Assembly: GCF_002950945.1 (NCBI RefSeq)
Contig: NZ_CP012673.1
Location: 12,081,501-12,145,500, forward strand
Source of the DNA: Sorangium cellulosum
GTDB lineage: Bacteria > Myxococcota_A > Polyangia > Polyangiales > Polyangiaceae
DNA: 64,000 nt
Reading direction: 5' to 3'
Under the pieces are notes generated by a model. That model ran no database searches, was not told the origin of the DNA, and saw only the letters and a list, made by a program, of their open reading frames with translations. The position numbers were made by a program, and so were the translations under genes. Within the stretch, counting starts at the first letter, position 1. Every line of letters starts with the position of its first letter. This document shows positions 32,801 to 46,566 of this stretch, piece by piece.

Positions 32801-34388
32801 GTTCCCGCTCGACGCCAGGGTCGGCACCGCGCGCCTCCTCGCCGCGCGCGTCGTCGTGGATCACGGCGCCGGGCGGGTCGGCTACCGCCACGCGCTCGTG
32901 CGCGAGTCGGTGGCGCGGGCCGTGCCGGAGGCGCAGCGGCGGCGCATCCACCGCGCCGCCGCCGCGTACTACGCGCAGGGCCGGCCGGGGCTCGGCGAGG
33001 AGCGGCGGATCGCGCAGCTCGCCCGCCACGCGGGCGCGGCCGGCCTCGCCGATCTCGCGGCGCACTCGTTCTTCGCGCTCGCCGAGCGCGCCCGCGCGCG
33101 CCACGCCTACACCGACGCGGAGCGCCTCTACAGCCGCGTCCTGGAGCAGTCCGCGGGCGAGGCGGGCGAGGCGGGCGAGGTGTCGGTCGACCGCCGCGCC
33201 ACGTACCGCGGGCGCGGCCTGATGCGTTACCGCATCGGCCGCTACCACGACGCGCTCACGGATCTGTCCTGCGCGCGGGAGCTCGCCGCGCAGGCAGGCG
33301 ACGTCGCGGAGCGGGTCGAGCTCCTCCTCGACGAGGCCACCGCGCTCGACTGGATGGACGACTTCGAGGCGTCGCAGGCCCGGGTCGAGGAGGCGCGGGT
33401 CGAGGAGGCGCGCGCGCTCCCGCCCAACGCGCGCTCGCCGCTCCTCGAGGCGCGCCTCCTCCTCGCGTGCGGCCGTTCCGCCTTTCGCTTCAGCCGCAAC
33501 GACGAGGCGGCCGCGCTGCTCGAGCGCTCCGCCGCCATCGCGGAGCACCTCGGCGACGACGGCTACGAGACGCTGGTCATCGCCCTGACGCTGCTCGGCT
33601 TCCTCCTCGCGGGGATCGGCCGGCCTGACGACGCGCGGGCCGCGCTCGACCGGGCGGTCGACCTGGCCGAGTCGCGCGGCGATCAGCTCCAGCTCGGCGC
33701 GGCGCTCAACGTCCGTGCGCTCTCGGCGGCCAACTGCGGCGACGAGGACTGCCTCATCGCCGACATGGAGCGCTCGCTCGCCGTGGCGCGCGAGCTCGGG
33801 CAGCGCTCGCTCGAGCTGATGGGCGAGTACAACCTCGGCGAGTACCTGCTCCTGCTCGACAACGCGCCGGCGGCGGAGCCCCACGTCCTGCGGGCGCTCG
33901 CGCTCGATCGCGCGATCTCGGGCGAGCCGGGTCGCGCCGTGGTGGCGTTGCTCGAGGCGCGGCTTCGTTTTCATCGTGGCGAGGAGGAGGCGGCGCGCGA
34001 CGCGGTGGCGCACATCCGCGCCCTCCAGGCGGAGGCGCGCGCCCGCGGCGAGGCCGGCGCGCTCCTCTCGCCGTCCGAGGACGTGCTCTGCTCCGCCCTG
34101 GAGCTCGCCACGGCGGCCGCCGCGGAGGACGCCGCGTGGGAGGTGCTCGAGGCGCGCGCCGCGCGCTTCTCCCTGGGCCAGGAGCGGATCGAGGTGGTCG
34201 AGGCGCGCAGCGTCTCCGCCGCGCGCCGCGGGCGCCGGGAGGAGGCGCTGCGCCAGATCGATCGCGCGCTGGAGCTCTCGTGCCGCGTCCCGAGCGCCAT
34301 ACTCCGCCGGCTCGCCCGGCGGCGCGCCGATCTCGAGAAGGGGGATCACTACGTGTCTCTGGTGTACCCCGAACACGAACGTCGTTAG
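29862..34388 (+). CDS. Ser/Thr protein kinase with AAA ATPase and TPR-like sensor region
   Basis: A 1508-residue protein. An N-terminal zinc-ribbon-like segment (CLGCGRRITVCCPLHG, about 21-36) precedes the kinase: GGFGLVFEAG loop, VAIKVAR (Lys), HRDLKPEN catalytic loop, DFGL, APEL. A Pro/Ala spacer follows, then an array of DALSLSSGPLSLSS repeats (about residues 540-610). The ATPase part has Walker A EPGLGKSH and Walker B LLVVVDDAH, and the C-terminal half is rich in helical TPR-like units. This order (kinase, ATPase, TPR) is common in large myxobacterial signalling proteins. It probably senses a partner through the TPRs and uses phosphorylation as output. Start ATG 29862. Confidence 0.92.
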   Translation: MPSSLYREEPQRASAPAMQRCLGCGRRITVCCPLHGDLGFSGGAPDTLQATGVATPRIGGYRVRRLVARGGFGLVFEAGRERDGARVAIKVAREDRNGAPAYLEHEIAALARVVGPHVPAVHEHGRTAGGAPYLVMEYIDAPPLADRLVDRPEPVPVSEAVALADAILRALAAVHARGCLHRDLKPENILVDRTLHVTLIDFGLTIPLRSEDASAEVTAEGAGVGTAEYMAPELWEGALDLDRRADLYAVGAILFEMLAGSPPFWGPRPVVREGHMSRRPPRIGAPSREPSVLSAVEEVVSRCLAKERRERFDTADELRAALDAALREAPTLRCTRPGPPAAAPGAPAAAPETPAAAPGAPAAAPGPPAAAPAGDPRGDRVTVGLLFFDTTLDMAALQARLKALGGQLGRASAGRCAAVFAYDVSENPARHARRAAEELLRLGVCERARVDLAPVLVQIKRDGTRRFLSPLFSRAERFPAAGDPVGVAIAPAAAAVLHDLPDTARSGARSSSSGPLSLPSGAPSASRHDAPAPMAPSLPSSAPSLSSDALSLSSGPLSLSSDALSLSSGPLSLSSDALSLSSGPLSLSSDALSLSSGPLSLSSDAPALSSDAASAARHDVPDALDPDTWPLFGRDVVLAALAESALAAAAEGVPTVVSVIAEPGLGKSHLARALLARLAAAVPGARVLALRALEPALGHADQALAELLERVLDLPPGPPRDGGAALLRERLAPTSGDLMPAVALTLGWVTPGAEGAPLRAALRRLDAAPGALRTALTVAAGGAVRRAAARTPLLVVVDDAHFAGDALLAALEYAALAGPRLSLWICALGRPELEQERRTWGDGAARRERHRLGPLDAASADALCRRLLLPVESPPESAVQQLVARAEAIPLLLVELLRGLRREGIVRKSPKGEAWYLATDELDRLPDLPLIEWLARRELDALAPALRSHARLIALLGDQVTLDEIKGLLGLLEREGADAEFPLDARVGTARLLAARVVVDHGAGRVGYRHALVRESVARAVPEAQRRRIHRAAAAYYAQGRPGLGEERRIAQLARHAGAAGLADLAAHSFFALAERARARHAYTDAERLYSRVLEQSAGEAGEAGEVSVDRRATYRGRGLMRYRIGRYHDALTDLSCARELAAQAGDVAERVELLLDEATALDWMDDFEASQARVEEARVEEARALPPNARSPLLEARLLLACGRSAFRFSRNDEAAALLERSAAIAEHLGDDGYETLVIALTLLGFLLAGIGRPDDARAALDRAVDLAESRGDQLQLGAALNVRALSAANCGDEDCLIADMERSLAVARELGQRSLELMGEYNLGEYLLLLDNAPAAEPHVLRALALDRAISGEPGRAVVALLEARLRFHRGEEEAARDAVAHIRALQAEARARGEAGALLSPSEDVLCSALELATAAAAEDAAWEVLEARAARFSLGQERIEVVEARSVSAARRGRREEALRQIDRALELSCRVPSAILRRLARRRADLEKGDHYVSLVYPEHERR
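31491..31690. repeat. 42-base tandem repeat array inside the kinase gene
   Basis: Nearly five copies of a 42-base unit code for DALSLSSGPLSLSS. Some copies are identical. It separates the kinase part from the ATPase part and is likely to vary in length between strains. Confidence 0.85.
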
Positions 34389-34619
34389 CGGATCACGCCG
34401 GAATGAGATCGTATCCGCCGTGGCAGCTGTTGCGGACACCGGATAGAGATGTATTGGTCATCATGGGAGGGATTCCATGATGAGCCTCAAGCGCAGACTC
34501 GCGCCCATTCCGGTGGCGGCGTTGTCCCTCGCGGCCTGTGTCGCGGAGACGGACATCGGTGAGCCCCTCAGCGCGGATGTGAGCGCGCTGGCGACTAAAA
34601 TGCGCTGATCCCGAACGCG
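34284..34619. repeat. Tandem segmental duplication, left copy
   Basis: It runs from the last codons of the kinase (RVPSAI... end), through the intergenic region, to the leader of a lipoprotein gene. It is matched by the right copy (34626-34986), which lies about 342 bases further on. The right copy carries 25 extra bases before the start codon. Confidence 0.8.
34477..34608 (+). pseudogene. Frameshifted leader copy of the NALIP-repeat lipoprotein
   Basis: Reads MMSLKRRLAPIPVAALSLAACVAE... for 43 residues with lipobox LAAC and a GGGAGG ribosome-binding site. It matches the intact gene at 34844 up to VSALA. One base is missing relative to ACAGACAAT in the intact copy, and TGA follows at once. 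It may still yield a short lipopeptide, but as a gene it is broken. It comes from the tandem duplication described here. Confidence 0.8.
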
Positions 34620-34625
34620 CCCGCA

Positions 34626-34986
34626 CGCGTCCCGAGCGCCATCCGCCGCCAGCTCGTCCGGCGGCGCGCCGATCTCGAGGAGGGGAGTCACTACGTGTCT
34701 CGGGCGCGCCCCGGTCACGAACATGAATAGAAAATCACCGTATGAAGAAATGGTATCCGCCATGACAGGAATCGCATTGCGGCGGAATCTACTGTTGCGG
34801 ACGCCGGACAGAGGGGTGTATTGGTCATCCTGGGAGGGATTCCATGATGAGCTTCAAGTATAGACTCGTGCCGATTCCGGCGATGACGTTGTCCCTGGCG
34901 GCCTGTGTCGCGGAGACGGATATCGGTGAGCCCCTCGGTGTGGAGGTGAGCGCGCTGGTGACAGACAATGCGTTGATCCCGAACGC
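34626..34986. repeat. Tandem segmental duplication, right copy
   Basis: The first part still reads as a kinase C-terminus (RVPSAIRRQLVRRRADLEEG ending in stop at 34728-34730), followed by the intergenic part and the real start of the lipoprotein gene. Identity to the left copy is high but imperfect. Confidence 0.8.
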
Positions 34987-35698
34987 GCTGATCCCGAACG
35001 CGCTGATCCCGAACGCGCTGATCCCGAACGCGCTGATCCCGAACGCGCTGATCCCGAACGCGCTGGATCCTGCTTCGCTCGGGGCCATCCGGGATCCTGG
35101 GCAGCTGGGCGAGGTGTCGCGGCAGTTCCTGAGGTATGCGGTGGGTTGCGCGCTCGGCGCCACGCAGGTGTTCAGCTTCTCGTGGACCGACGCCGGCGGC
35201 GTCGTGCACGGCGAGGTCTACCCTGGCGTCCTCGGCATCGCGCCGTCGTGGGCGACGCAGCCTCTCAACGACGTCACGAAGCAGCGGCTGGTCTCGGGCT
35301 GCATTGCCAGCCGCGCCAACTACTTCGGGGTGAACGTGGTCATCTCGCTGCGCTCGCCCCAGAACCCGCTGAGGAGGCTGGTGCCCGAGGCCGAGGTCGC
35401 CGCGTATCCGGTCATCGAGGGCGCCTTCTGGGGCAACCTGTTCACCGCGAGCCCGTCGATCCGCGCGTGTTATCACGCCGCCGGCGTTGCGACAGCGCGC
35501 GCCGCCCTGCGGGAATGCGCCGTGGGTCACCTCGACGCCGCTGGCGGCGTCGTCCCCTGCGGCCCCATCGCCCTCGCGGGCGCGTGCGACGTCCCGTGTC
35601 CGAACATCGACCGATCGGGTCGTTACTACACAGGATGCAGCGATCCGTCCGGCAGCGGCAACGTGATGCAGGAGGTGATCACGACGGCCCTGCCCTGA
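34844..35698 (+). CDS. Lipoprotein with NALIP pentapeptide repeats and Cys-containing C-terminal domain
   Basis: 284 residues. Two ATGs overlap at the start (34844, 34847) behind GGGAGGGATTCC. Signal peptide MMSFKYRLVPIPAMTLSLAAC has lipobox LAAC. From about residue 42 there are six to seven copies of NALIP, then a domain with FLRYAVGCALGATQVFSF, SGCIASRANYFGVNVVISL, NLFTASPSIRACYHAAG and CDVPCPNIDRSGRYYTGCSDPSGSGN. Paired Cys suggest disulfides outside the cytoplasm. I recognise no known family. The leader and upstream region were duplicated, and the upstream copy is broken. Confidence 0.75.
   Translation: MMSFKYRLVPIPAMTLSLAACVAETDIGEPLGVEVSALVTDNALIPNALIPNALIPNALIPNALIPNALIPNALDPASLGAIRDPGQLGEVSRQFLRYAVGCALGATQVFSFSWTDAGGVVHGEVYPGVLGIAPSWATQPLNDVTKQRLVSGCIASRANYFGVNVVISLRSPQNPLRRLVPEAEVAAYPVIEGAFWGNLFTASPSIRACYHAAGVATARAALRECAVGHLDAAGGVVPCGPIALAGACDVPCPNIDRSGRYYTGCSDPSGSGNVMQEVITTALP
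34972..35068. repeat. 15-base tandem repeats encoding NALIP
   Basis: AACGCGCTGATCCCG is repeated about six times, almost without change. This places a Leu every fifth residue, similar in rhythm to pentapeptide-repeat proteins. Confidence 0.9.
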
Positions 35699-36295
35699 TC
35701 CACGCGGCTGGGAGGGACGGTCGGCGGCGCATCCTCTCGCGCTGCGCTGCGAGAGGCGGCCGCGAGGGCGTGCTCTCCCTCCCCGCCGGGGTCGCCCGCG
35801 TGCTGGCCAGGGAGCTCGCGGACCGCACCGCGATACGCGCCCTCGCGGGGGGTCGGCCGCGCTCGCCCCACATGGCCCCCGGAGAGGGCGTTCCGGTGGG
35901 GTGTCGCTCGACGAGCGGGTCCGCGGCGCCGACGGTGCTCGACTGTGGCAGCGGCGCCGCAGGGCCGGCGACACCGCTCCTCGCCGGAAGACACCAGAGC
36001 ACAGGAGAGCCATGCGCTCCGCAGGGCAGAATCGGATCTCTGCTCGCGGCTCATGGAAATGGCTAGACAGGCCGGCTCGGCAGAGAATAGATTGAACACT
36101 GGAACTCTGCGCATCCACCCTCGAATCGAGGAAGGCGCTCCCGCGTGCCGGTTCTGAGACCGAGCAGCCGCGGGGCGCTGCTCGATGAGAGCCCGTGAAA
36201 CATCGATCTCGCCTGGCCCCTGCGTCACGGCGCCTGCTACTCGGATGACGCTCCAGCGGTGGTTCGCCACGCCCATGAACCAGAAGGAGCAATCA
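35699..36295. other. Intergenic stretch, no gene seen
   Basis: About 600 bases between the NALIP lipoprotein and the DNRLRE protein. No frame has protein-like content. The right end holds AAGGAG just upstream of the next ATG. I see no repeat or RNA gene. Confidence 0.5.
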
Positions 36296-37870
36296 ATGAA
36301 ACAGGCCGTCATCATCTCATCCGCCGCGCTCGCGGCGCTGTTCGCCACGTCCACCAGCGTCGCCAGCACCCCCGGTTCACCCACGCCCACCTGCGACGTC
36401 ATCCAGCGGGGCGTCCTCGGCGACGTGCGTGACGCGGAGATCTGGAGCCTCAACGCGAGCTACCATGTGCCCGACGCCTACGAGGTGAACACCGGCTACT
36501 CGAGCGCCTACGGCGAGAAGCGAGCCCTGTTCGGGTTCGATCTCGGCTCGATCCCCGGAGGCTCGTTCATCTCGTCGGCCAGATTCTATGTCTCCACCTA
36601 CAGCAGCACCACCCAGGCCGTGCGTGTCCACCGGGTGCTCGCCCCCTGGAGCGAGGCCGACGTCACCTGGGACAACCTCGGCGGCGTCGACCCCGCGGCG
36701 GTCGCGTCGTTCGAGTCCGGCGGCAGCGCGTGGCGCGAGATCGTCCTCACGGGGCTCGTGCAGGACTGGGTGAGCGGGGTCGTGCCCAACCACGGCATCC
36801 TGCTCGAGCAGGACCTCGGCGGGAAGACCTCGTACAAGAGCAGCGATCACCCGGACCCGGACAACCACCCGTTCATCGAGGTGTGTTATCTGGCGCCGAG
36901 GGGCTCGATCGGCGGCGCGGTGTGGCTCGACGGCGACGCGGACGGGCTCTACGAGCCGGAGCTCGGCGTGGACGGCGCCGTCGTCGATCTGTTCCTCGAC
37001 GGCACGCTCATCGACAGCGCGGTGACGGGGTCCAGCCCCTCGACAGGCCAGCCGGGCTTCTACCACTTCGACGGCCTGCTTCCGGGCACCTACACCGTGG
37101 CGATCGCGCCCGAGAATTTCGTGGCCGGCGGGCCGCTCGCCGGGCATGAGCCGACGGTGGACCACGACGGCGGCGCTGACGGCGTGGCCGTCGTCTCGCT
37201 CGCGCCAGGCCAGGATCTGCACGACGCCGGCTTCGGTTACCAGCCCTCCTGCGGCAACGGCGTCTGCGGCGGCGACGAGAGCTGTTCGACGTGCGCCGCC
37301 GACTGCGGGGTATGCCCGCCCGTCTGCGGCGATGGCGCCTGCGGAGCCGGCGAGTCCTGCTCGAGCTGCGCGGCGGACTGCGGGGCCTGCCCGCCCGTCT
37401 GCGGCGACGGCGTCTGCGCGGAGGGGGTCGAGGGCTGCTCGAGCTGCGCGTCCGATTGCGGCGTGTGCGAGTGCACGTCCCCCGGCACGGCCTCACCCGC
37501 CGAGTGGGCAGCCGACTCGAGCGGCTTGCGCGTCCTGTTCCTGACGATCGGCGGCAGGCTCTACCTGAACCTCCAGCTCCTCGGCATCCTGCTCCGTCCG
37601 GACCAGGGCGACATGAGTTATCTCCTCGCGAAGCAGCTCATCGCCGCCAAGCTCAACATCGGCCTCGGCAACCAGTCGATCTGCATCGAGAGCACCATCG
37701 CCGCGGCCGAGGCCTGGCTCAGGATCTACCCGGCCGGCAGCAACGTGACGGAGGGCTATCGACCCTCGGCATGGGAGAGCGGCAGGCCTCTGCTCGAGAG
37801 GCTCGAGGCGTACAACTACGGCGAGCTCTGCGCGCCTCACCGCGATGACGTCCACTGCGACGACGATTGA
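36296..37870 (+). CDS. Exported protein with DNRLRE-like domain, SdrD-B-like domain and Cys repeats
   Basis: 524 residues from ATG 36296, which follows AAGGAGC. A signal peptide MKQAVIISSAALAALFATS ends at SVAS. Residues about 30-190 form a DNRLRE-type beta domain (LFGFDLGSIPGGSFISSARFYV, VTWDNL, WVSGVVPNHGILLE). SdrD-B/carboxypeptidase-regulatory-like sequence follows (IGGAVWLDGDADGLYEPELG, GFYHFDGLLPGTYTVAI). Three Cys repeats of the form CGDGACGAGESCSSCAADCG come next, and finally a helical C-terminus (LYLNLQLLGILLRPDQG, LLAKQLIAAKLNIGLGNQS). It looks like a cell-surface or secreted carbohydrate- or protein-binding factor. Confidence 0.82.
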   Translation: MKQAVIISSAALAALFATSTSVASTPGSPTPTCDVIQRGVLGDVRDAEIWSLNASYHVPDAYEVNTGYSSAYGEKRALFGFDLGSIPGGSFISSARFYVSTYSSTTQAVRVHRVLAPWSEADVTWDNLGGVDPAAVASFESGGSAWREIVLTGLVQDWVSGVVPNHGILLEQDLGGKTSYKSSDHPDPDNHPFIEVCYLAPRGSIGGAVWLDGDADGLYEPELGVDGAVVDLFLDGTLIDSAVTGSSPSTGQPGFYHFDGLLPGTYTVAIAPENFVAGGPLAGHEPTVDHDGGADGVAVVSLAPGQDLHDAGFGYQPSCGNGVCGGDESCSTCAADCGVCPPVCGDGACGAGESCSSCAADCGACPPVCGDGVCAEGVEGCSSCASDCGVCECTSPGTASPAEWAADSSGLRVLFLTIGGRLYLNLQLLGILLRPDQGDMSYLLAKQLIAAKLNIGLGNQSICIESTIAAAEAWLRIYPAGSNVTEGYRPSAWESGRPLLERLEAYNYGELCAPHRDDVHCDDD

Positions 37871-37996
37871 CGTCGTGACGAGGATCGTCCCCGAACGCTG
37901 ACGGTGAGCGGGCAAGCTTCCCGCTCACCCTCCGGCGCACGCCCTGTCGCACGGCTCGCCGCCGCGGTCGATCCGGAGCTCGTCCCCGTTCTCGGG

Positions 37997-38387
37997 CTGT
38001 TCGCCCGCCATGCCCTCACGTGCGCCACGAAGTCCGCCCGCGCGACCACCACCCCGCCGCTCACGTCCTCCTCTCCAGCGCCCCGATCACCACGTCCGCA
38101 TACGCCGCATACGGGTCACTCCCCTCGTCAAACGCACCCTCCACCTCCGAGGTAGTTCCACAGGTCGTCCGGGTCCCACCCTCGCTGTTGGTCGTCGACG
38201 AAGACGGTTCTGAAAGGGCGATTGACGGTTCCGAGAGAGCGGATGCCCACCCCCGGCCCGTGCTCGGCGCTCCGCGCCTGCGCGCGGTCCGCCCCTCCCT
38301 AATCGCGCGCTCCGCGCGCTCAGGGAGGGGTGCGCCGTCGGGGACCTGCGGCCGGGGTGCGAGGTTTGGAGATGGGAAAGCGTGCAC
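37997..38387 (-). pseudogene. Decayed third toxin-module fragment
   Basis: From the GTG at 38387, just after the second candidate immunity gene, the frame reads the linker also seen before toxin 2 (AFPSPNLAPRP, GAPLPERAERAIREGRTA) and then TTSEVEGAFDEGSDPYAAYADVVIGALE, matching both toxins. A deletion removed the GESDVPWVE segment, and a short insertion shifts the frame just after IGALE. Beyond it, in another frame, SGGVVVARADFVAHVRAWRAN continues to about 37997, where homology ends. It is a broken copy of the module. Confidence 0.85.
38293..38330. repeat. Cassette linker hairpin, copy in front of the third module
   Basis: CCCCTCCCT and AGGGAGGGG form the outer stem around GCGCGC blocks. The identical structure occurs at 40795-40833. 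It is transcribed within the operon and could act as a partial terminator or RNA-processing site between modules. Confidence 0.7.
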
Positions 38388-38395
38388 GACGCGCG

Positions 38396-39454
38396 TCAGG
38401 ACATCAGCCCGAGCACGAAGAGCGCGTCGGCCCAGAGCGGCCAGAGCGTGCGGTACGGGTGGGTCGCCAGCATCACGCCGCCGCTCGGCAGGCGGCGCAC
38501 GTGGAAGGGGGCGTGCTCTTCGAGGAAGCGGACATGCCCGGGTGACGTGATCTTTGCCCGTAAGGCCGGCGGCCCCTCTCCCTCGGCGGCTTCGTCGAGC
38601 TGACGGAGCAGCTCCATGATCTCCTGCGCCTTTGGCTCGGCGGCACGCCACGCGTCGTCGGGCACCGCCGCGGCCTCGAGTGCTTCGAGCAGCGTGGCCG
38701 GCGGCGTCGCGAGCGCCTTCAGGACGGTCTCGCGCGAGAGCGAGCCCGCGAGCTCGCCGCCGCCTTTCATGGGTACGCGCGCGCCGCGCGGCGCGGCTCC
38801 CACCCGCGCGCGGAGCGCCGAAAGCGACATGCCCGCGATGCGCGGGACGCTCGCCTTGTCGTGCAGGTGCACCCACGACAAGGCGAGATCGCGCGCGAGC
38901 TCCGCCGCGTTCGCGTTGTAGGTCGCGCACATCGCGACCGGGGCGAGCCAGTCCTCCTTGTCCGTGCAGGCGCCGGTCGGCACGCGCGCGCTCCCGTCCG
39001 GCGCGCAGACGCGGAGCAGGAGTTCCTCGATGTCGCCCTGAACCAGGTGATACGCGACCGCGGCCTCTGCCTCCACAGCGCGCGGGCCGCCGCCCACGGG
39101 GATCTCATACGGATAAAAATCCCACTTGCGTTCGCCCGCTTCTAATCTGATCGGGCCGAACGGATGGCGACGTTCGCTTTCTTCGGGGTAGCACGCAGCG
39201 CTGAAAACCATGGTGCGTTCGGAATCGTTCAGCATCACGCCGGACAGCACGTGAGCGCTGTTCCGTCCTCCAAAGTGGGCGCGAATCATCGCGAGCGCCT
39301 CGTCCATGGAGGACGTCTTGCACCAGATGTCGGTGCTCATGTCCACCGAGATGAGATCCCCTGGGATAACTAGTGCAGACAGCGCCACCGCGAACGCATC
39401 GACCCGTTCTGGCTCGTCACACCAGGCGAAGAAGTGAGGTCTTGATTCGCTCAT
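38396..39454 (-). CDS. Candidate immunity protein 2 of the toxin array
   Basis: 352 residues, starting with the ATGA that overlaps the stop of toxin module 2. It has no signal peptide or membrane segment, so it is probably cytoplasmic, as an immunity protein against an internal nuclease should be. The ends resemble those of the first candidate (start FFAWCDEPERVDAF, end HVRFLEEHAPFHVRRLPSGG and LWPLWADALFVLGLMS), and the middle (about residues 60-200) is clearly less alike. I recognise no named immunity family; the role is inferred from position and paired divergence. It could instead be a chaperone or regulator. Confidence 0.65.
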   Translation of the reverse strand: MSESRPHFFAWCDEPERVDAFAVALSALVIPGDLISVDMSTDIWCKTSSMDEALAMIRAHFGGRNSAHVLSGVMLNDSERTMVFSAACYPEESERRHPFGPIRLEAGERKWDFYPYEIPVGGGPRAVEAEAAVAYHLVQGDIEELLLRVCAPDGSARVPTGACTDKEDWLAPVAMCATYNANAAELARDLALSWVHLHDKASVPRIAGMSLSALRARVGAAPRGARVPMKGGGELAGSLSRETVLKALATPPATLLEALEAAAVPDDAWRAAEPKAQEIMELLRQLDEAAEGEGPPALRAKITSPGHVRFLEEHAPFHVRRLPSGGVMLATHPYRTLWPLWADALFVLGLMS

Positions 39455-40890
39455 AGATAGAACTTCGCCCCCTGCTCCATGATGAGCTCGACCCGTTGCA
39501 CGTCACCGGCCAGCCCCTTCCTCTTCACCGCCTCCATGGCGTTCGTGAGCTGGTTGCGCACGTCGCTGACCGGGATCGTTCCGCCCTTCGCCTCGCTGAT
39601 GATGAGCTTGTGCCCGCTGGACACTGACACAAAATCGGGCGCCATTCCCTCGATAGTACCATGGCGTGACTCGCTCGGAATGCCGAGCACCCTGCGCACA
39701 CCGTCGTCGCCGACCCCGAGGATCGACCTGTCGTCGTACACCAGGAACTTAGCCGCTTTCTTCTCGAAGATGTTCACCGGCTTCGTCGTGACCGCCCCGT
39801 CGAGGTTCTTGTACGCCTTGCGGCGGTTCGTGCGCAGGATCTGGACGAACGCCTCCTCGATCTCGGCGATCTCCCCGGCCACCCGGATCGCGGACGGCCT
39901 GAGCCCCCCGCTGGTCTTGATCACCCGCCACATCGGTCCGATCGCCGCGACCCCGAACCCCAGCCCCGAGAAGATCCTCTCCTCGTCGCTCAGCTCCTGC
40001 CCTCCAGGCAGGCAGAACGCCTTACCCGTCACCGCCTCGCACAGGTCCAGCGCCGGCCCCACCACCGGCACGAACCCCACCGCGAGCCGCGTCGTCGCGT
40101 GCACCAGCGTCTGCATCGTCTCGACGTAGACGTCGACCCCTTCACCGACCGTCGACATCGCCCCCGCGAACGCGCTGATCGTCTGGTAGAGCTGCGTCTG
40201 CTCCAGGTCGAGCCCCTCCCCCGTCCACAGGTTGAGGCTGTCCTTCATCTGGTCCGCGAGCGCGTCGAACCTCGGCTTGAGCACCGCGTCCACCTGCGCC
40301 CACAGGTCCGCCGGCACCGGCGTGTCCTCGAACCAGTCCGACGCATCCATGTACCGCCGCACGTACCCGGCGATCCGGTTCTGCGCGTTCAGGAACGCGT
40401 TCGTCTCCGCCCGCGACACCCCCATTCGGTCGCGCATCGCGATCTCCAGCGCCGCGCTGTTCGCCCGCCATGCCCGTACGTGCGCCACGAAGTCCGCGCG
40501 CGCGACCACCACCCCGCCGCTCACGTCCTCCTCCAGCGCCCCGATCACCGCGTCCGCGTACGCCGCATAGGGATCCCTCCCCTCGTCAAACGCCCCGTCC
40601 ACCTCCGAGATGTCCGGCACCTCCACCCACGGCACGTCGCTCTCTCCGAGCGCGTACGCCATCGGGTCGTCCGGGTCCCACCCCTCGCTGTTGGTCGTCG
40701 ACGAAGACGGTTCTGAAGCCGCGGCGGGCAGTTCCGAGAGTGCGGATGCCCACCCCCGGCCCGTGCTCGGCGCTTCGCGCCTGCGCGCGGTCCGCCCCTC
40801 CCTAATCGCGCGCTCCGCGCGCTCAGGGAGGGGTGCGCCGTCGGGTACCGGCGGCCGGGGTGCGAGGTTTGGAGATGGGAAAGCGTCCAC
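39451..40890 (-). CDS. Orphan polymorphic-toxin module 2 (pre-toxin TG motif + nuclease-like C-terminus), lacks export region
   Basis: I place the start at the GTG 40890, eight bases after the first immunity gene. The first 70 residues are linker, then the protein matches residues about 291 onward of toxin 1: SDVPWVEVPDISEV, RIAGYVRRYMDASDWF, FVPVVGPALDLCEAVTGK (the PT-TG motif) and LSDEERIFSGLGFG. The C-terminal domain diverges more and ends earlier than in toxin 1, with PDFVSVSSGHKLIISEAKGG keeping the D...ExK pattern. There is no signal peptide, so this is either a silent donor module or an internal toxin. An in-frame GTG at 41145 would overlap the upstream gene by 247 bases and is unlikely. 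Confidence 0.72.
   Translation of the reverse strand: MDAFPSPNLAPRPPVPDGAPLPERAERAIREGRTARRREAPSTGRGWASALSELPAAASEPSSSTTNSEGWDPDDPMAYALGESDVPWVEVPDISEVDGAFDEGRDPYAAYADAVIGALEEDVSGGVVVARADFVAHVRAWRANSAALEIAMRDRMGVSRAETNAFLNAQNRIAGYVRRYMDASDWFEDTPVPADLWAQVDAVLKPRFDALADQMKDSLNLWTGEGLDLEQTQLYQTISAFAGAMSTVGEGVDVYVETMQTLVHATTRLAVGFVPVVGPALDLCEAVTGKAFCLPGGQELSDEERIFSGLGFGVAAIGPMWRVIKTSGGLRPSAIRVAGEIAEIEEAFVQILRTNRRKAYKNLDGAVTTKPVNIFEKKAAKFLVYDDRSILGVGDDGVRRVLGIPSESRHGTIEGMAPDFVSVSSGHKLIISEAKGGTIPVSDVRNQLTNAMEAVKRKGLAGDVQRVELIMEQGAKFYL
40795..40833. repeat. Cassette linker hairpin, copy in front of module 2
   Basis: Same stem as at 38293-38330: CCCCTCCCT paired with AGGGAGGGG around GCGCGC blocks. 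It lies in the roughly 200-base linker between immunity gene 1 and toxin module 2. Confidence 0.7.
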
Positions 40891-40898
40891 GGCCTGCG

Positions 40899-41951
40899 TC
40901 AGGACATGAGTCCGAGCACGAAGAGCGCGTCGGCCCAGAGCGGCCAGAGCGAGCGGTACGGGTGGGTCGCCAGCATCACGCCGCCGCTTGGGAGGCGGCG
41001 CACGTGGAACGGCGCGTGCTCTTCGAGGAAGCGGACGTGCCTGCGCGTGGTCGTGTCCACCCGCCACGTGGGCAGGTCTGCGATCTCCTCGATCTGGCTT
41101 GTCAGCTCCAAAATCTCTCTCGCGCGCGGCGCGGCGGCGCGCCACGCGTCGTCGGGCACCGCCGATGCTTCGAGCGCGTCGAGCAACGCGGAGGGCGGTG
41201 CTGCCAGCGCCTTGAGGACGGTCTCGCGGGAGAGCGAGCGCGCGTGCTCGCTGCTACCTTGCATGGCGACGCGCGCACCGGCCGGTGCGGCGTCCACGCG
41301 GGCGTGGAGCGCAGCGAGCGACATGCCTGCGGCGCGCTGGACCTTGCCCTTGTCGTGGAGGTGCACCCACGACAGGGCGAGATCCCGCGCGAGCTCCGCG
41401 GCGTTCGCGTTGTAGGTAGCGCACATGTCGACCGGTGCGACCCAGTCCCAAGCGTTCGTGCACGCGCCGGTCGGGATCCGTCCGCTCGCGTCCGGCGCGC
41501 AGAAGCGGAGCAGGAGGTCCTCGAGGTCGTCCTCAATCACGAGCCACGCCACCGCAGCCTCGGTCTCGATCGAGCGCGGGCCCCTGTCCAAGACGAGATC
41601 GAGATCAGGACTGAGAAAGTCCGACTTGTCGCACACGCGCAAAACGAGGGGGCCGGATGCATGGCGGCGTTCGTATTCTTCCGCGAAGCATGCGATGCCG
41701 AAGCAGACGTCACGCTCCGGGTGGCGCAGCATGACACCGGAGGCTACATCCGCGTTGATCCATCCGGAGAAGTGGGCGCGGACGGTCGCGACCGCCTCGT
41801 CGATGGAGTGCGTTTTGTACCGGATGTCATTGTCCATCGCCACGCGGATGAGGTCCCCTGGGATCATCACCGCAGACAACGCTGCCGCGAGCGCGTCGAC
41901 CCGGTCTGCCTCGTCACACCATGCGTAGAACATGGGACCTGCTTCGCTCAT
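40899..41951 (-). CDS. Candidate immunity protein 1 of the toxin array
   Basis: 350 residues, starting in an ATGA overlap with the toxin stop (41948-41951). No signal peptide, no membrane segment. Start MSEAGPMFYAWCDEADRVDA and end HVRFLEEHAPFHVRR...ALFVLGLMS are shared with the second candidate; the residues between differ much more. Candidates in the middle include WDWVAPVDMCATYNANAAEL, seen in both. I infer it neutralises the C-terminal nuclease domain of the gene before it. The size is larger than most immunity proteins, which is the main reason for caution. Confidence 0.68.
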   Translation of the reverse strand: MSEAGPMFYAWCDEADRVDALAAALSAVMIPGDLIRVAMDNDIRYKTHSIDEAVATVRAHFSGWINADVASGVMLRHPERDVCFGIACFAEEYERRHASGPLVLRVCDKSDFLSPDLDLVLDRGPRSIETEAAVAWLVIEDDLEDLLLRFCAPDASGRIPTGACTNAWDWVAPVDMCATYNANAAELARDLALSWVHLHDKGKVQRAAGMSLAALHARVDAAPAGARVAMQGSSEHARSLSRETVLKALAAPPSALLDALEASAVPDDAWRAAAPRAREILELTSQIEEIADLPTWRVDTTTRRHVRFLEEHAPFHVRRLPSGGVMLATHPYRSLWPLWADALFVLGLMS

Positions 41952-44152
41952 AGCCGGATCACCATGATGGACTTGTTGCCCACGGTGACGGGTTTGCCCG
42001 TGAGCAGGTTGACCATGTAGCCGTCCCGTACGCCGATGTTCTTGTTATGAAACGTCGCCCCCTGCTTCATGATGAGCTCCAAGCGGGCAACGTCGCCATC
42101 GAGCCCCCACTTCGTCTTCAGCGTGTCCATCGCGTTCGTCAACTGGTCGATCACGTCCTCCACGATTACGCTGTCCCCACCTTTTGCCTCGCTGAGAATC
42201 AGATCGTTCCCTCCGCGTAGCGAGACGAAGTCGGGCGCCATCCCCTCGATAGTACGAGGGCGTGACTCCTTTGGTATGCGGAGCACCCTCCGCACTCCAT
42301 CATCGCCAACCCCGATCAGCGCTCGTCCGTCGTCCACCAGGAACTTGGCCGCCTTCTTCTCGAAGATATTCACCGCCTTGGTCGTGATCGCCCCGCGGAG
42401 GTTCTTGTAACCCCTGACGCGGTTCGTCTTCACGATCCGGGCGAAAAACTCCTCGATCTCGGCGATCTCCCCGGCCACCCGGATCGCGGCCGGCCGCAGC
42501 CCGCTGCTGGTCTTGACCGCGCGCCACATCGGTCCGACCGCCCCGAGCCCGAACCCCAGCCCCGAGAAGATCCGCTCCTCGTCGCTCAGCTCCTCCCCCG
42601 ACGGCACGCACCACGCCTTACCCGTCACCGCCTCGCACAGGTCCAGCGCCGGCCCCACCACCGGCACGAACCCCACCCCGAGCCGTGTCGTCGCGTGCAC
42701 CAGCGTCTGCATCGTCCCGACGTAGACGTCGACCCCTTCGCCCACCGTCGACATCGCCCCCGCGAACGCGCTGAGCGTCTGGTAGAGCTGCGTCTGCTCC
42801 AGGTCGAGCCCGTCCCCGGTCCACAGGTTCAGGCTGTCCTTCATCTGGTCCGCGAGCGCGTCGAACCTCGGCTTGAGCACCGCGTCCACCTGCGCCCGCA
42901 GGTCCGCCGGCACCGGCGTGTCCTCGAACCAGTCCGACGCATCCATGAACCGCCGCACGTACCCGGCGATCCGGTTCTGCGCGTTCAGGAACGCGTTCGT
43001 CTCCGCCCGCGACACCCCCATCCGGTCGCGCAGCGCGATCTCCAGCGCCGCGCTGTTCGTCCGCCATGCCCGCACGTGCGCCACGAAGTCCGCCCGCGCG
43101 ACCACCACCCCGCCGCTCACGTCCTCCTCCAGCGCCCCGATCACCGCGTCCGCGTACGCCGCATAGGGATCCCTTCCCTCGTCGAACGCCCCCTCTACCT
43201 CCGAGATGTCCGGCACCTCCACCCACGGCACGTCGCTCTCTCCGAGCGCGTACGCCCCAGGGTCGTCCGGGTCCCACCCTTCCGCGCGCGCGTCCTGCGT
43301 CACGAGGTCCGCCACCTCGTCCGCCTGCGCGCCGAACTCGTCCATCAGCCGCGCGAGCTCGTCCTCCAGGTCGCTCACGCTCTGCTTCAGGTCGTCGATG
43401 AGCTGCTCCAGCGCCGCGCGCGTCTCCGGCGCGACCACGTCCTTGTACCGGTCGAGGATCGCGTCGAGGTCGGTCCGCGAGATCTCGTCCAGCGGCCGGC
43501 TGACCAGGTCCTTCAGCTCGGTGTCGAGCTGCTGGAGCAGATCCATCGTCTCCGCCAGGCGCTCCACGCGCGGCGCGTTCGCCACGAGCTCCTTGCGCTC
43601 CTTGGCGATCTCCGCCAGCAGGATCTCGATGTCGCGCGCCAGCGCCGGATTGATCTCCGCGAGGCTCAGGTCGACCGCGGTGTCGCCCTCGAAGCCGGTC
43701 CCATCGCGGCGGATGTCGAAGAGCGGCTTGTTGAGCCCGAGCGGCTCCGAGACCAGGTGCGCCACCTCGTGCGCGTGGGTACACCAGTCGCTGCCGTTCG
43801 TCGTGTGGACCCGGAAGCGAAACTCGTTCTCGCCCATGAAGAGCAGCACCGAGTCGAACTCTGCCTCGAGCGTGTTGCTTCTGGAGCCGTCGCCGTGGAT
43901 CGCCAGCGCGCCCGGAACCCCGTAGGTGGGCAGCGGCGTCTGGTTCACCTCGAACATCGCGCTGCCCTCCGTCTTCAGCTCGGGGATCCCGCACGAGGCG
44001 GCGTCATGGTGGCTGCTCCAGAGCACACTGTACGGCGTGCCCGCCCACGCGAACGACGGCGCCAGCACCGCCAGCATCGTGACCAGCGCGACGGCCTTGT
44101 GCAGCGCCGCGGCGCTCCGGCCGCGCCGCGCGACATCCTTCGACCCTCTCAT
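41948..44152 (-). CDS. Polymorphic toxin with signal peptide, coiled coil, pre-toxin TG domain and PD-(D/E)XK-like C-terminus
   Basis: 734 residues. A Sec-type signal peptide ends at SFAWA (cleavage after about residue 37, no lipobox). A beta-rich segment follows to about 165 with WCTHAHEVAHLV (HExxH-like, 128-132), then a long coiled coil (about 170-285). After a variable-free central region, GFVPVVGPALDLCEAVTGK (about 494-512) and the following SDEERIFSGLGFG match the pre-toxin TG (PT-TG) domain known from secreted polymorphic toxins. The C-terminal domain has D641, E655 and K657 in PDFVS...LILSEAKGG, the D-ExK core of PD-(D/E)XK nucleases. The likely target is DNA or RNA in a rival cell. 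It starts inside an ATGA overlap with the lipoprotein gene and ends in one with the candidate immunity gene. Confidence 0.85.
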   Translation of the reverse strand: MRGSKDVARRGRSAAALHKAVALVTMLAVLAPSFAWAGTPYSVLWSSHHDAASCGIPELKTEGSAMFEVNQTPLPTYGVPGALAIHGDGSRSNTLEAEFDSVLLFMGENEFRFRVHTTNGSDWCTHAHEVAHLVSEPLGLNKPLFDIRRDGTGFEGDTAVDLSLAEINPALARDIEILLAEIAKERKELVANAPRVERLAETMDLLQQLDTELKDLVSRPLDEISRTDLDAILDRYKDVVAPETRAALEQLIDDLKQSVSDLEDELARLMDEFGAQADEVADLVTQDARAEGWDPDDPGAYALGESDVPWVEVPDISEVEGAFDEGRDPYAAYADAVIGALEEDVSGGVVVARADFVAHVRAWRTNSAALEIALRDRMGVSRAETNAFLNAQNRIAGYVRRFMDASDWFEDTPVPADLRAQVDAVLKPRFDALADQMKDSLNLWTGDGLDLEQTQLYQTLSAFAGAMSTVGEGVDVYVGTMQTLVHATTRLGVGFVPVVGPALDLCEAVTGKAWCVPSGEELSDEERIFSGLGFGLGAVGPMWRAVKTSSGLRPAAIRVAGEIAEIEEFFARIVKTNRVRGYKNLRGAITTKAVNIFEKKAAKFLVDDGRALIGVGDDGVRRVLRIPKESRPRTIEGMAPDFVSLRGGNDLILSEAKGGDSVIVEDVIDQLTNAMDTLKTKWGLDGDVARLELIMKQGATFHNKNIGVRDGYMVNLLTGKPVTVGNKSIMVIRL

Positions 44153-45458
44153 GTCCCCTCCGCGCCGCGCACCGCGGCGTCATACGCGATCGCGGCGCCC
44201 TTCACGTCGCCCGCGTCGAGCCGCGCCTGCGCTTTGTCGAGCGCCACCGCGGCCATCCCCTTCTCCCGCAGCTTCTCCAGCCCCGCCGCGATCTTCCGCG
44301 GCAGCCCCGTCCTGAGCTCGGCCTCCGCGGCCTCGAACCGCTCCCGGAGCGCCGCGCACCCCGCCTCGCGCCACGACGACGACGCGGCCTCGCAGAGCGG
44401 CCGCATCTGGAGCAACGCCGTCAGCTCCCCGCATCGCTCGGCGAGCAGCGGCAGCCCGAGCCGCTCGCTCACCGGCGGCGCCGCCGACAGCGCCTCCGCC
44501 CGCGCGCGCGCCCGTTCCCCGAAGGTCTCCGACGCCTTGCGGATCCGCGACCGCGCGATCGCCTCGCGCGTCCCCTCGTCCATCTCCAACACGCGAAGCG
44601 CCTCCCGGCGCAGCGCGATCCCGCCGAGCAGCGACGTCGCCGTCGCGTCGCTCCGGGCGACCCGCCGTTGCGCATACCCCAGCATCGCGCTCAGCGACCG
44701 CAGCGCCCCCGAGGTCATGTCCGGCAGCATAGCGCCGTGCGTGGCGAGGAACTCCCGGTGCGGCGCCATCGCCTCCTCAAACGACGCCGCGAAGACCTGG
44801 AGCTCCGCCGCCAGCGCCATCACCTCCGCCGCGAGCTCGTTCGGCGCGCGGCTCGCCTCGCGGGCCGCCTCGAGCACCGCCTGCTCCACGCCGTCGAGGC
44901 CTTCGCTGTCCGACCGCGACGCCTGCTCCGAGAGCGCCGCGTACGCCGCCGTCTCCGCCGCCTCGGTCGCGCGGTACGCGGCGAACCGCGCCGCGGCGCC
45001 CGCGCCGCGTCGACCGGCGTCTGCGCGAGCAGCGCCCTCTGCCGGTCCGTCGCCTCGTCGAGCAGCGACGCGAGCTTGCCCGAGAGCGTCGCCCGCAGCG
45101 ACTCGGCGTTCCTCGCGTCGTCCCGCACGTACTCGATCGCCTCGTCCAGGTGGCCAAACCACTGGTCGAGCCGGTGCGTGCGCGCGACCACGTCGTCCAG
45201 TGTCTTGTCGCCCGGCCACGTGGCCCACATCTCGATCGGCAACGAGCCATCCTTCTCGGCCTTGCTCCACGCGTTGCCCGGGCCCAGGTTCTCGCCGACG
45301 CAATGCTCCTCGCCGCCCACGGCGGCGGCGCAGAAGCTCCCGAGCGTGTGATCCCCGCGCTTCCACAGGCACCCTGACCCCAGCGCGCCGAGCGCCAACG
45401 CGGCAAGCGCCGCCACGACCATCACCTTCCGTCGCCTCGTTCTCCTTCTCATACTCAT
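44149..45458 (-). pseudogene. Lipoprotein gene at the head of the toxin operon, interrupted by one frameshift
   Basis: The ATG at 45456-45458 follows GGTGGAGGC. The first frame gives MSMRRRTRRRKVMVVAALAA and lipobox GSGC, then LWKRGDHTLG and helical sequence down to ALLAQTPVDAA. From about 45010 the protein continues only in another frame (RFAAYRATEAAETAAYAALS) to the stop at 44149, which overlaps the toxin start. Adding one base in the GC run near 45000-45015 joins both halves into a 436-residue, helix-rich lipoprotein. Either the base call is wrong or the gene is newly broken. Myxobacterial SitBAI toxin operons also begin with a lipoprotein gene, but homology is not shown here. Confidence 0.75.
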
Positions 45459-45768
45459 TGCCTCCACCCTGCGATTCTTGTCGCGCGCGCAAGCTCGCCC
45501 CCTCCTCCTCCCGGTGCAAGCGTCATTGCGGGAGCGATAGGACATTGCCCAGCCGAGGAGCGCGCCGAGACGCGCCCCGAGATCCATTCCCTCCGTCCTC
45601 GGCGCACAGGCCGCCGCCGTCGAGCGTGCCACTCCGAGAGAGCAAAGAACCGACGGCCGCCGGGCCGCGAGCGCTCAAGAATCCTCTTCCAATCGCTGAA
45701 ACTCCCATTGTAACTTCCGCCCTCATTGCCGCCGTCCGGCGTTGCCGGCCGGCAGGGAGGAGATCAGC
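45459..45768. other. Divergent intergenic region at the head of the toxin operon
   Basis: 310 bases between the operon (minus) and the unknown plus-strand gene at 45769. It must hold both promoters. GC drops near 45680-45730 (around CATTGTAACTTCC), which fits a promoter, but I cannot assign -35/-10 boxes. No gene is seen. Confidence 0.45.
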
Positions 45769-46566
45769 ATGGAATACTCGGATGTAGTCCTCGAGGGCAC
45801 GCCGGAGCGCGCCACCAAGCTCCTGATGGGGATTGGCGCCGTCGCCGCGATTCGCACGTTGATGGCCGGGGCAGGGATGACCGACGACGATATCCTGGAG
45901 GGCCGCGCGCTCCTCCTCGACGTCCTCGCCGCTCCCCGCAAGACCGCCGGCGCGCCGGCCGATACCGACGATGCCAGGGCACAGCGCGCCGCGACCGGGG
46001 AGCTCGATCAATGGGACGAGCCCAACTTCGCCCGCCACGGTGCCGCGCTCCGCCGGCGCTTCCCCGACGTGCACGATTACGTGTTCAAGGACCTCGCGCC
46101 CTCCACCGGCACCGCCGCCGTCCGGGGAGTGGCCACCTTCCTCGCGCGGCTCGACGCTCTCGAGAACGGCACCGACCCGGACCGCGCCGGGACGAAGCAG
46201 AGCGACAAGAAGGCAGTCGCATTCCTCGCCACCCGCGGCCTCGACAAGGCCGAGCGCAAGCGCCTCAAGGGCCTTGTCGACGTGGCCCTCGGCCCGACAT
46301 CACCTCTGCCCGAGACAACCGAGCTGCCGGAGGCCGCGCGCCGGCGCGAGGCGCTCGTCAAGCTGCGCGCCTGGTTCGACGAGTGGTCGACCACGGCCCG
46401 CGCGGTCACCAAGAAGCGCAGCTATCTCATCCGCCTTGGCCTCGCGAGCCGCAAGGCGCCCCAGCGCAAGCCCGCGACCACGCCGCCCAAGCCGAGCAAG
46501 CCCACCGCCACGCCGTCCGAGCCGACAGCGCCGGGTGAAGAGACCGGCGGCGCCGTTTTCGAGTAA
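45769..46566 (+). CDS. Unknown protein with basic Pro/Lys-rich tail
   Basis: 265 residues from ATG 45769 with a strong GGGAGGAG site. The N-terminal part (MEYSDVVLEGTPERATKLLM, GAGMTDDDILEGRALLLDVL) and middle (FLATRGLDKAERKRLKGLVD) are helical. The C-terminus is a disordered run rich in Lys, Pro and Thr (RKAPQRKPATTPPKPSKPT). I recognise no family. It has no signal peptide. Its place next to the divergent toxin operon may be incidental. Confidence 0.6.
   Translation: MEYSDVVLEGTPERATKLLMGIGAVAAIRTLMAGAGMTDDDILEGRALLLDVLAAPRKTAGAPADTDDARAQRAATGELDQWDEPNFARHGAALRRRFPDVHDYVFKDLAPSTGTAAVRGVATFLARLDALENGTDPDRAGTKQSDKKAVAFLATRGLDKAERKRLKGLVDVALGPTSPLPETTELPEAARRREALVKLRAWFDEWSTTARAVTKKRSYLIRLGLASRKAPQRKPATTPPKPSKPTATPSEPTAPGEETGGAVFE

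What the first reader, a model, noticed from the sequence alone, without database searches (positions are those of the whole stretch)
37997..45458. Tandem polymorphic-toxin/immunity cassettes in one overlapping operon
Reading the minus strand: lipoprotein (45458-44149), exported toxin (44152-41948), candidate immunity (41951-40899), second toxin module (40890-39451), second candidate immunity (39454-38396), decayed third module (38387-37997). Three junctions are exact ATGA overlaps: lipoprotein to toxin 1, toxin 1 to immunity 1 and toxin module 2 to immunity 2. Toxin 1 alone has a signal peptide and coiled coil; module 2 begins where the export region of toxin 1 ends (about residue 291). This is the arrangement expected if silent cassettes downstream can recombine with the expressed toxin, as known for CDI and Rhs orphan modules and, in myxobacteria, for SitBAI toxins delivered by outer-membrane exchange. 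The toxin here has no lipobox, so it is not simply a SitA.
Basis: partly seen in the sequence, partly recalled or inferred. Interest (0 to 1): 0.85.

Follow-up and report, generated by a model that had tools for sequence, protein, structure and literature searches.

The report
Sorangium toxin operon with spare cassettes
This soil myxobacterium carries an operon for an exported, probably DNA- or RNA-cutting toxin and its immunity protein, followed by spare toxin-tip/immunity cassettes, and comparison with related strains shows that toxin tip and immunity gene are exchanged together between loci, which could make a readily changeable weapon for competition between close relatives.

Summary
The locus is real and is a polymorphic toxin/immunity locus, with corrections. 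The 'lipoprotein' at 45458-44149 is not one frame: intact relatives encode ~485 aa; the window copy lost 151 nt and is frameshifted. The 'starts' of modules 2 and 3 lie in a spacer holding a ~97-bp hairpin repeat; toxin homology begins at residue 291. The three ATGA overlaps are exact. Fifteen such loci lie in four Sorangium genomes, the window's included; a sister genus has the family too. Toxin C-terminus and immunity gene accept one tree (AU p about 0.3 each way); the export part has another (rejected at p<=0.002 in all four comparisons). The lipoprotein follows the export part. At one chromosomal site in three species, C-terminus and immunity differ more than the toxin's middle. The C-terminus models as a PD-(D/E)xK-like fold; the immunity model's best fold matches include an Imm52 protein. 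Toxins and lipoproteins are often broken, immunity genes rarely. It is not a SitA (no lipobox on the toxin); the closest analogue is Neisseria MafA-MafB-MafI with silent cassettes, without detected sequence relationship. Killing, pairing and delivery are inferred, not shown.

The parts
44149..45458 (-). Upstream lipoprotein gene, frameshifted here by a 151-nt internal deletion (junction about 45003/45004); N-terminal half with lipobox (LGSGC), C-terminal half in another frame, ending in the ATGA overlap with the toxin
   Evidence: 11 intact relatives of 480-489 aa with invariant lipobox Gly-Cys
41948..44152 (-). Full-length exported toxin, 734 aa: Sec signal peptide by eye (about residues 1-37, AWA|G), variable N-terminal part, conserved middle (about 200-540, weak Pre-toxin TG match 492-546), variable C-terminal nuclease-like domain (about 565-734)
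41948..42460 (-). C-terminal domain with E598, D641, E655-x-K657, Q670 pattern; PD-(D/E)xK-like fold in the model
40899..41951 (-). Immunity 1, 350 aa; best fold matches include an Imm52 protein
40744..40840 (-). 97-bp structured repeat (three helices with compensatory changes) in the spacer between immunity 1 and module 2
39451..40686 (-). Silent toxin module 2: homology starts at toxin residue 291 (GWDPDD motif), no signal peptide, catalytic pattern present, about 32 C-terminal residues missing
38396..39454 (-). Immunity 2, 352 aa, 67% identical to immunity 1, closest (84%) to the immunity protein of L047 in another Sorangium genome
38241..38337 (-). Second copy of the 97-bp structured repeat
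37993..38184 (-). Remnant of a third module (start of the conserved toxin region, broken frame, similarity ends at 37993)

Best explanation
A lineage-restricted polymorphic toxin/immunity system of Sorangium and one sister genus. A lipoprotein, presumably of the outer membrane, and a Sec-exported toxin are made from one overlapping operon together with an immunity protein that stays in the cell. The lipoprotein and the toxin's N-terminal two thirds form the delivery block; the C-terminal ~170 residues, probably a PD-(D/E)xK nuclease, and the next one or two genes (Imm52-like by fold) form the exchangeable weapon block. Downstream modules that begin at toxin residue ~291 and lack an export signal are silent spares: ~600 nt of 95-99% identity on the 5' side and ~130 nt of 95% on the 3' side give homology for crossing-over or gene conversion onto the expressed gene, and immunity genes left downstream keep protecting against the old toxin. 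Shown: anatomy, block-wise exchange, decay pattern. Inferred: killing, cognate neutralisation, nuclease activity, use of the neighbouring spares as donors, delivery (the lipoprotein acting as secretion partner like MafA, or transfer of outer-membrane content by TraAB), and competition among relatives as purpose.
For: Mantel correlations of protein distances, 19 Sorangium pairs of 23: C-terminal domain vs immunity r=0.84 (0 of 5000 permutations); N-terminal part vs immunity -0.26 (10 loci), middle vs immunity 0.11 (15 loci). AU tests on 10 loci: C-terminal and immunity data accept each other's tree (p 0.285 and 0.334); the export-part tree is rejected by both (lnL 371 and 856 worse, p 4.7e-5 and 1.3e-23), and the export-part data reject both of theirs (p 0.002 and 8e-6). 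The switch lies at residues ~520-580, after the Pre-toxin TG stretch. Lipoprotein tracks N-terminal part (0.70) and middle (0.75), not C-terminus or immunity (about 0; 9 loci). Direct swaps: L050/L053 98% in N-part, 42% C-terminus, 45% immunity; L053/L056 72%, 90%, 94%. Same site in three species: flanks 79-94% nt, middle 81-82% aa, C-terminus 46-49%, immunity 59-65% against the window. Folds: immunity pLDDT 89, five best rows Z 7.8-8.2 include an Imm52 protein and chains of two toxin-immunity complexes, next unrelated 5.0; the C-terminus matches EndoMS, FokI, Card1 and EcoO109I. Pre-toxin TG at E<=0.01 in 13 of 15 toxins, under the cut-off for the window's. Broken among 15 Sorangium loci: lipoprotein 5, main toxin 6, first immunity 1; of 18 further immunity genes 1 is partial (my tally). 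TraA/TraB-like gene pair in this genome.
Against: No experiment shows toxicity, protection, secretion or transfer. The second, toxin-less immunity genes track the toxin C-terminus as well as the first ones do (r 0.785 vs 0.792, 10 loci), so co-divergence shows co-transfer, not cognate binding by itself. With the sister genus included, middle vs immunity also correlates (r 0.56, permutation p 0.0002, 19 loci) and N-part vs immunity weakly (0.20, p 0.098, 12 loci), as expected from species divergence, but still below C-terminus vs immunity (0.87, 23 pairs). At the shared site the N-part is only 66% identical (window vs L048), hardly more than immunity, and L048/L051 C-termini are 70%. Fold matches are moderate (Z about 8; immunity Foldseek E 0.08; C-terminal domain Z<=7.7), and no Pfam or NCBIfam toxin or immunity family matches above cut-off. 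The lipoprotein is broken in this strain, so delivery from this locus may be off, or supplied by the intact copies at L011 and L012. All C-termini aligned here are one homologous family, narrower than CDI or Rhs.
Confidence: 0.78

Rival explanations
1. The downstream modules are only debris: displaced old toxin tips whose toxin part decays while immunity is kept, never recombined back into the expressed gene. (Compatible with the toxin/immunity reading; it denies only the use of the spares.)
For: Module 2 lacks about 32 C-terminal residues yet keeps the ATGA junction to immunity 2; module 3 is a remnant; 11 of 15 loci have toxin-less extra immunity genes (my tally). Immunity arrays by effector displacement are known in Vibrio (PMC5361080, abstract and passages).
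Against: The silent C-terminus of L052 is full-length; the toxin part of module 2 has dN/dS 0.29-0.50 in four comparisons, similar to comparisons among expressed copies; blocks are exchanged between loci, though the donor need not be the neighbouring spare.
Confidence: 0.4
2. A SitBAI system delivered by TraAB outer-membrane exchange.
For: Three-gene overlapping operon with accessory, toxin, immunity order; TraA/TraB-like pair in this genome; Sorangium TraAB reported (PMC6372800 and PMC3325183, passages).
Against: SitA orthologs all carry lipoboxes and SitB a type I signal (PMC5562445, sections 9 and 12); here it is the reverse: toxin type I signal, upstream gene lipobox.
Confidence: 0.12
3. 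The C-terminal domain is a housekeeping or phage-defence nuclease regulated by the downstream protein, not a weapon against neighbours.
For: A nuclease-like fold alone does not show a toxin; nearest folds include DNA-repair enzymes. PADLOC gave three weak toxin hits (best E 0.026), all in the helical stretch 167-286.
Against: Sec signal, Pre-toxin TG stretch, immunity-type fold matches, multi-copy variable loci and frequent loss of the toxin with retained immunity; no PADLOC hit on the C-terminal domain or on immunity 1.
Confidence: 0.08

Closest known systems
Neisseria MafA-MafB-MafI islands (PMC4287609: passages; PMC7738311: abstract, passages, section 18)
   Same: Lipoprotein gene directly upstream; toxin with signal peptide, conserved N-part and variable C-terminus; immunity gene next; C-terminal cassettes downstream, some without start codon. 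MafA is needed for MafB secretion.
   Different: No sequence relationship found: no DUF1020 hit on the toxin, no Pfam hit for the lipoprotein; lipoprotein is ~485 aa against a 34-kDa MafA; the C-termini here belong to one nuclease-like family. Maf was reported as Neisseria-specific in 2015 and found more widely later.
CDI and Rhs orphan modules (PMC3150448, passages)
   Same: Orphan C-terminus/immunity pairs downstream, starting at a fixed peptide motif (VENN or PxxxxDPxGL there, GWDPDD region here), mostly without translation start.
   Different: No filamentous haemagglutinin or YD-repeat hit, no CdiB-type transporter in the operon; the conserved arm after the boundary is ~250 residues, and the tree switch lies ~250 residues beyond the boundary.
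SitBAI (PMC5562445, sections 7, 9, 12 and passages)
   Same: Myxobacterial three-gene overlapping operon; nuclease-type C-terminus; host has TraAB-like genes.
   Different: Signal types of upstream protein and toxin are swapped; toxin has no lipobox.
Tox-REase-5/Imm52 pairs (PMC3482391, table passage)
   Same: Restriction-endonuclease-type toxin paired with an alpha+beta immunity protein; the immunity model matches an Imm52 structure.
   Different: Neither Pfam family appears in the sequence scans; immunity here is 350 aa against 228-235 residues in the matched chains; delivery differs.

Membership tests
Polymorphic toxin/immunity system | Conserved trafficking part and variable C-terminal toxin part with an adjacent immunity gene that varies with it | tested here: met
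Polymorphic toxin/immunity system | Downstream toxin-tip/immunity cassettes without export part | tested here: met
Polymorphic toxin/immunity system | C-terminus toxic, neutralised by its immunity protein | not testable with these tools
   needs expression experiments
SitA | Lipobox on the toxin | tested here: not met
   By eye: type I signal, no lipobox Cys, in the 11 of 15 aligned toxins whose signal region is present
SitA | One of six N-terminal escort-domain families | not tested
   no SitA sequences or profile at hand
SitA | Host has traAB | tested here: inconclusive
   A candidate pair: Cys-repeat protein over the TIGR04201 cut-off followed by a protein with an OmpA domain; orthology not tested by tree, no Pfam hit on the TraA candidate
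Maf (MafA-MafB-MafI) | DUF1020 domain on the toxin | tested here: not met
   not among Pfam hits of 15 toxins at E<=0.01 nor of the window toxin at E<=1
Maf (MafA-MafB-MafI) | Lipoprotein upstream needed for secretion | not testable with these tools
   lipobox Gly-Cys in 11 of 11 aligned lipoproteins; role needs experiment
Imm52 | Pfam/NCBIfam profile match | tested here: not met
   no Imm52 hit in 32 members at E<=0.1 nor in NCBIfam at E<=1 for the two window proteins
Imm52 | Imm52 fold | tested here: inconclusive
   9owg Z 8.2, rmsd 4.9, 185 aligned; tied with 9oz0_A, 6d7y_B, 4rho_B, 7drg_A
PD-(D/E)xK nuclease | D...(D/E)xK residue pattern | tested here: met
   D66 and K82 of alignment A3 invariant, E80 at 90% or more (Gln in L046), 23 sequences
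PD-(D/E)xK nuclease | Fold | tested here: inconclusive
   Nuclease rows at Z 6.3-7.7 on residues ~565-734; EcoO109I first in Foldseek, E 0.04; middling values
CDI/Rhs toxin | Haemagglutinin or YD repeats, CdiB partner | tested here: not met
   no such Pfam hits at E<=1 on the window toxin, none at E<=0.01 on 15 toxins or 11 lipoproteins

The most novel reading that the evidence does not exclude
A fourth kind of myxobacterial kin-discrimination weapon beside outer-membrane exchange, T6SS and Rhs: a Sec-exported toxin carried across the outer membrane by a dedicated lipoprotein unrelated in sequence to MafA, with spare warheads that are exchanged among several loci of one genome by homologous recombination.
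Probability: 0.35. Interest if true: 0.78.

Novelty: new variant of a known kind. Interest (0 to 1): 0.62.

Why it matters
A 2023 review names three known kin-discrimination systems in myxobacteria (PMC10433427, passages); that paper's text does not mention Sorangium. This locus family gives a compact, testable system in which delivery and weapon blocks are cleanly separated by phylogeny, the swap point is mapped to about 60 residues, and several warheads coexist in one genome. If the lipoprotein proves to be the export partner, the Maf-like layout (lipoprotein, exported toxin, immunity, silent cassettes) exists in two groups without detected sequence relationship, and one can ask directly whether spares are used or merely remembered as immunity.

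Tried and rejected
Attachment-site idea: the 97-bp hairpin element before silent cassettes (5 of the 7 downstream modules) looked like a cassette recombination site. In G000 only the two cassette copies are strong matches (40 of 251 candidates scored), but other Sorangium genomes and three further genera of the family carry it in unrelated intergenic places, so it is a dispersed repeat and not toxin-specific; Rfam has no match at E<=1 in window 37900-46100. Plasmid search for the toxin: no match. Profile searches against solved structures gave hits that I take for noise (best E 0.0015, designed ankyrin proteins over a 27-residue stretch). 14-3-3 fold matches of the toxin come from a mostly low-confidence stretch, 317-404, and were ignored. 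The left-flank query 33-37 kb found no match at the orthologous sites, where that stretch is absent; part of it matches G003 elsewhere. The name 'Polyangiaceae', the readings 'VgrG-like' and 'phosphatase-like' and the taxonomy of the sister genus are recalled or by eye.

Rows dropped: L049 and L057 (broken C-terminal or immunity parts) and the remnants (window module 3, L011 and L053 ends, L123 end) were left out of the pair analysis, leaving 23 pairs; four of these, from the sister genus, were left out of the Sorangium-only tests; tree tests used 10 loci with contiguous main toxins, one of them (L058) lacking its signal region.
Full report
1. Observation. The minus-strand frames exist as described for toxin 1, immunity 1, module 2 and immunity 2, and the sequence shows exact ATGA overlaps at 44152-44149, 41951-41948 and 39454-39451. 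The first gene does not: 45458-44149 is 1310 nt, its frame stops after 212 codons, and alignment with the intact genes at L012 and L011 shows a 151-nt internal loss. The lipobox-bearing N-terminal half and the C-terminal half are in different frames. The GTG 'starts' of modules 2 and 3 lie just after the stop of the immunity gene, in a spacer; homology with the full toxin starts at residue 291 in module 2 and at the same point in module 3. Module 2 ends about 32 residues early, module 3 is a remnant with two stops.

2. The family. The window lies in a 14.56-Mb single-contig genome (G000) of the same genus as S. cellulosum So0157-2 (G004; contig length 14,782,125). In G000 there are three loci: the window, L011 (13.10 Mb) and L012 (7.40 Mb). 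Of 59 genomes searched (own included), 6 have the toxin: 5 of 6 in the genus, own included, and one of another genus. In a phylum-wide draw at E<=1e-6, 4 of 377 genomes match: own plus three of that other genus (two candidates per genome were scored, so weak relatives could be missed). Plasmid records: none. I examined 21 loci (window, L011, L012, L046-L063); 15 are full or broken operons in four Sorangium genomes (window, L011, L012, L046-L054, L056-L058): lipoprotein, toxin, immunity, in 13 of 15 with one to three further immunity genes. L059-L063 belong to the other genus; L055 has only a short C-terminal match.

3. Domain anatomy. By eye, toxins have a type I signal ending AWA|G in the window's. 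Among 10 full-length Sorangium toxins the N-terminal part is variable, the middle conserved (0.85-0.89 mean identity for windows within 201-540) and the C-terminus variable (0.49-0.62 for windows from 541). Thirteen of 15 toxins match Pre-toxin TG at E<=0.01; the window toxin lies under the curated cut-off. The full-length model is poor (pLDDT 51.8), but blocks from residue 581 on are at 71-92; this part resembles PD-(D/E)xK enzymes (a Pyrococcus repair endonuclease, EndoMS, Card1, FokI; Z 6.3-7.6, with a protein of unknown function first at 7.7; EcoO109I first in Foldseek, E 0.04). Glu, Asp, Glu-x-Lys and Gln positions are conserved (L046 has Gln for the second Glu). The immunity model is good (pLDDT 89.3, pTM 0.87); its five best VIA-align rows (Z 7.8-8.2, 149-199 aligned) are an Imm52 protein, a chain of the PA3907-PA3908 effector-immunity complex, a chain of a CdiA-tip complex, PA0821 (called a T6SS protein) and a hypothetical protein; that the two complex chains are the immunity partners is my inference. 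The sixth row is unrelated at 5.0. Foldseek's best is the CdiA-complex chain, E 0.08. Z values near 8 are middling, so this is a lead that fits, not proof.

4. Block-wise exchange. Distances of the C-terminal domain and the following immunity protein correlate at r=0.84 in 19 Sorangium pairs (0 of 5000 permutations), while N-part vs immunity is -0.26 (10 loci) and middle vs immunity 0.11 (15 loci). With the sister genus added the values are 0.87 (23), 0.20 (12) and 0.56 (19; p 0.0002), the last two raised by species divergence. A sliding window puts the switch at residues 520-580. The lipoprotein follows N-part (0.70) and middle (0.75), and neither C-terminus nor immunity (-0.02, 0.01; 9 loci, the broken window copy included as two halves). 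In AU tests on 10 loci, C-terminal and immunity alignments accept each other's trees (p 0.285, 0.334); the export-part tree is rejected by both (p 4.7e-5 and 1.3e-23) and the export-part alignment rejects both other trees (p 0.002 and 7.9e-6). Within one genome L050/L053 share 98% of the N-part but 42% of the C-terminus and 45% of immunity; L011/L012 95, 49, 46; between species L053/L056 share 72, 90, 94. Against cognate pairing as the only reading: the second, toxin-less immunity genes correlate equally well (0.785 vs 0.792, 10 loci), so the travelling unit is C-terminus plus one or two immunity genes.

5. Same site in relatives. The window locus sits between the same flanks as L048 (G003) and L051 (G004): window 24.6-29.1 kb on one side and 45.1-51.9 kb on the other, 79-94% nt in the aligned pieces. 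At this site the middle regions are 81-82% identical to the window's, the C-termini 46-49%, immunity 59-65%; the N-part is 66% for L048, and L048/L051 compare at 79, 70 and 60% for middle, C-terminus and immunity. L048 and L051 have a lone second immunity gene where the window has modules 2 and 3 plus ~8.9 kb of other genes (29.1-38.0 kb; among them a kinase and a CBM96/SdrD_B protein by Pfam). G002 has only the right-hand flank, up to window position 45639, in the stretch read, and no toxin match on that contig.

6. Spare cassettes. Seven downstream toxin modules lack a signal: window 2 and 3, a second copy and a remnant in L011, a second copy in L052, remnants in L053 and L123. All but the second L011 copy start at about residue 291 (281-293 by tblastn; five aligned). 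Window cassettes 1 and 2 are 95-99% identical over the first 600 nt, 62-91% between, and 95% over the last 134 nt: two homology arms around a divergent centre. dN/dS of module 2 and immunity 2 in six comparisons is 0.26-0.50, like the 0.23-0.51 among expressed copies, so it does not look like old junk, though recent transfer would give the same.

7. Decay. Among 15 Sorangium loci the lipoprotein is broken in 5 (window, L049, L050, L051, L054), the main toxin broken or truncated in 6 (L049, L051, L052, L054, L057, L058), the first immunity gene in 1 (L049); of 18 further immunity genes 1 is partial (L049) (my tally). L051, L052 and L054 of one genome share the same small partial duplication that breaks the toxin frame, although L051's counterparts at the same site (window, L048) read through that point: sequence has been copied between loci, by conversion or duplication. 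Sequencing error is possible for single lesions but unlikely for a shared one.

8. Mechanism and comparison. Most likely the lipoprotein helps the toxin across or onto the outer membrane and the C-terminus acts in a neighbour's cytoplasm; this is inference from the Maf analogy (MafA needed for MafB secretion, PMC7738311 abstract; silent cassettes, PMC4287609 passages). Outer-membrane exchange is an alternative: this genome has a TraA/TraB-like pair and Sorangium TraAB are reported (PMC6372800, PMC3325183 passages). The toxin is not a SitA: the signal types of toxin and upstream protein are the reverse of SitA and SitB. My literature searches that named Sorangium together with polymorphic toxins or immunity proteins listed no paper that I recognised, from titles and abstract openings, as describing this family; the library is open-access only, and the SitA family survey (PNAS 2019) was not read.

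Noticed in passing
window 40744-40840 and 38241-38337 (-); also G001-G005, G008, G013, G018: A ~97-bp dispersed intergenic element with three helices and compensatory changes: 45 cells changed on both sides and 96.5% of cells paired (0 of 500 shuffles each), 31.7-53.2% paired when slid; the counts of pairs and of pair types with such changes (6 and 8) do not exceed the shuffles (318 and 317 of 500). 9 of 30 genomes have it (139 candidates scored per genome); no Rfam match. In G002, G003 and G004 it recurs at about 3-7 kb spacing in tandem clusters with phosphatase-like, VgrG-like and repeat-protein genes (names by eye). Role unknown: terminator, regulatory RNA or mobile repeat.
   Followed up: partly
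L051, L052, L054 (G004), toxin residue ~199: Three toxin loci of one genome share the same frame-breaking partial tandem duplication, pointing to copying between loci.
   Followed up: partly
L121 (G000:C1 about 5671764-5675806): Candidate traA-traB pair in the window's genome.
   Followed up: partly
window 29122-37993: About 8.9 kb (kinase with AAA/TPR regions, CBM96/SdrD_B protein) present here but absent at the same site in G003 and G004.
   Followed up: no
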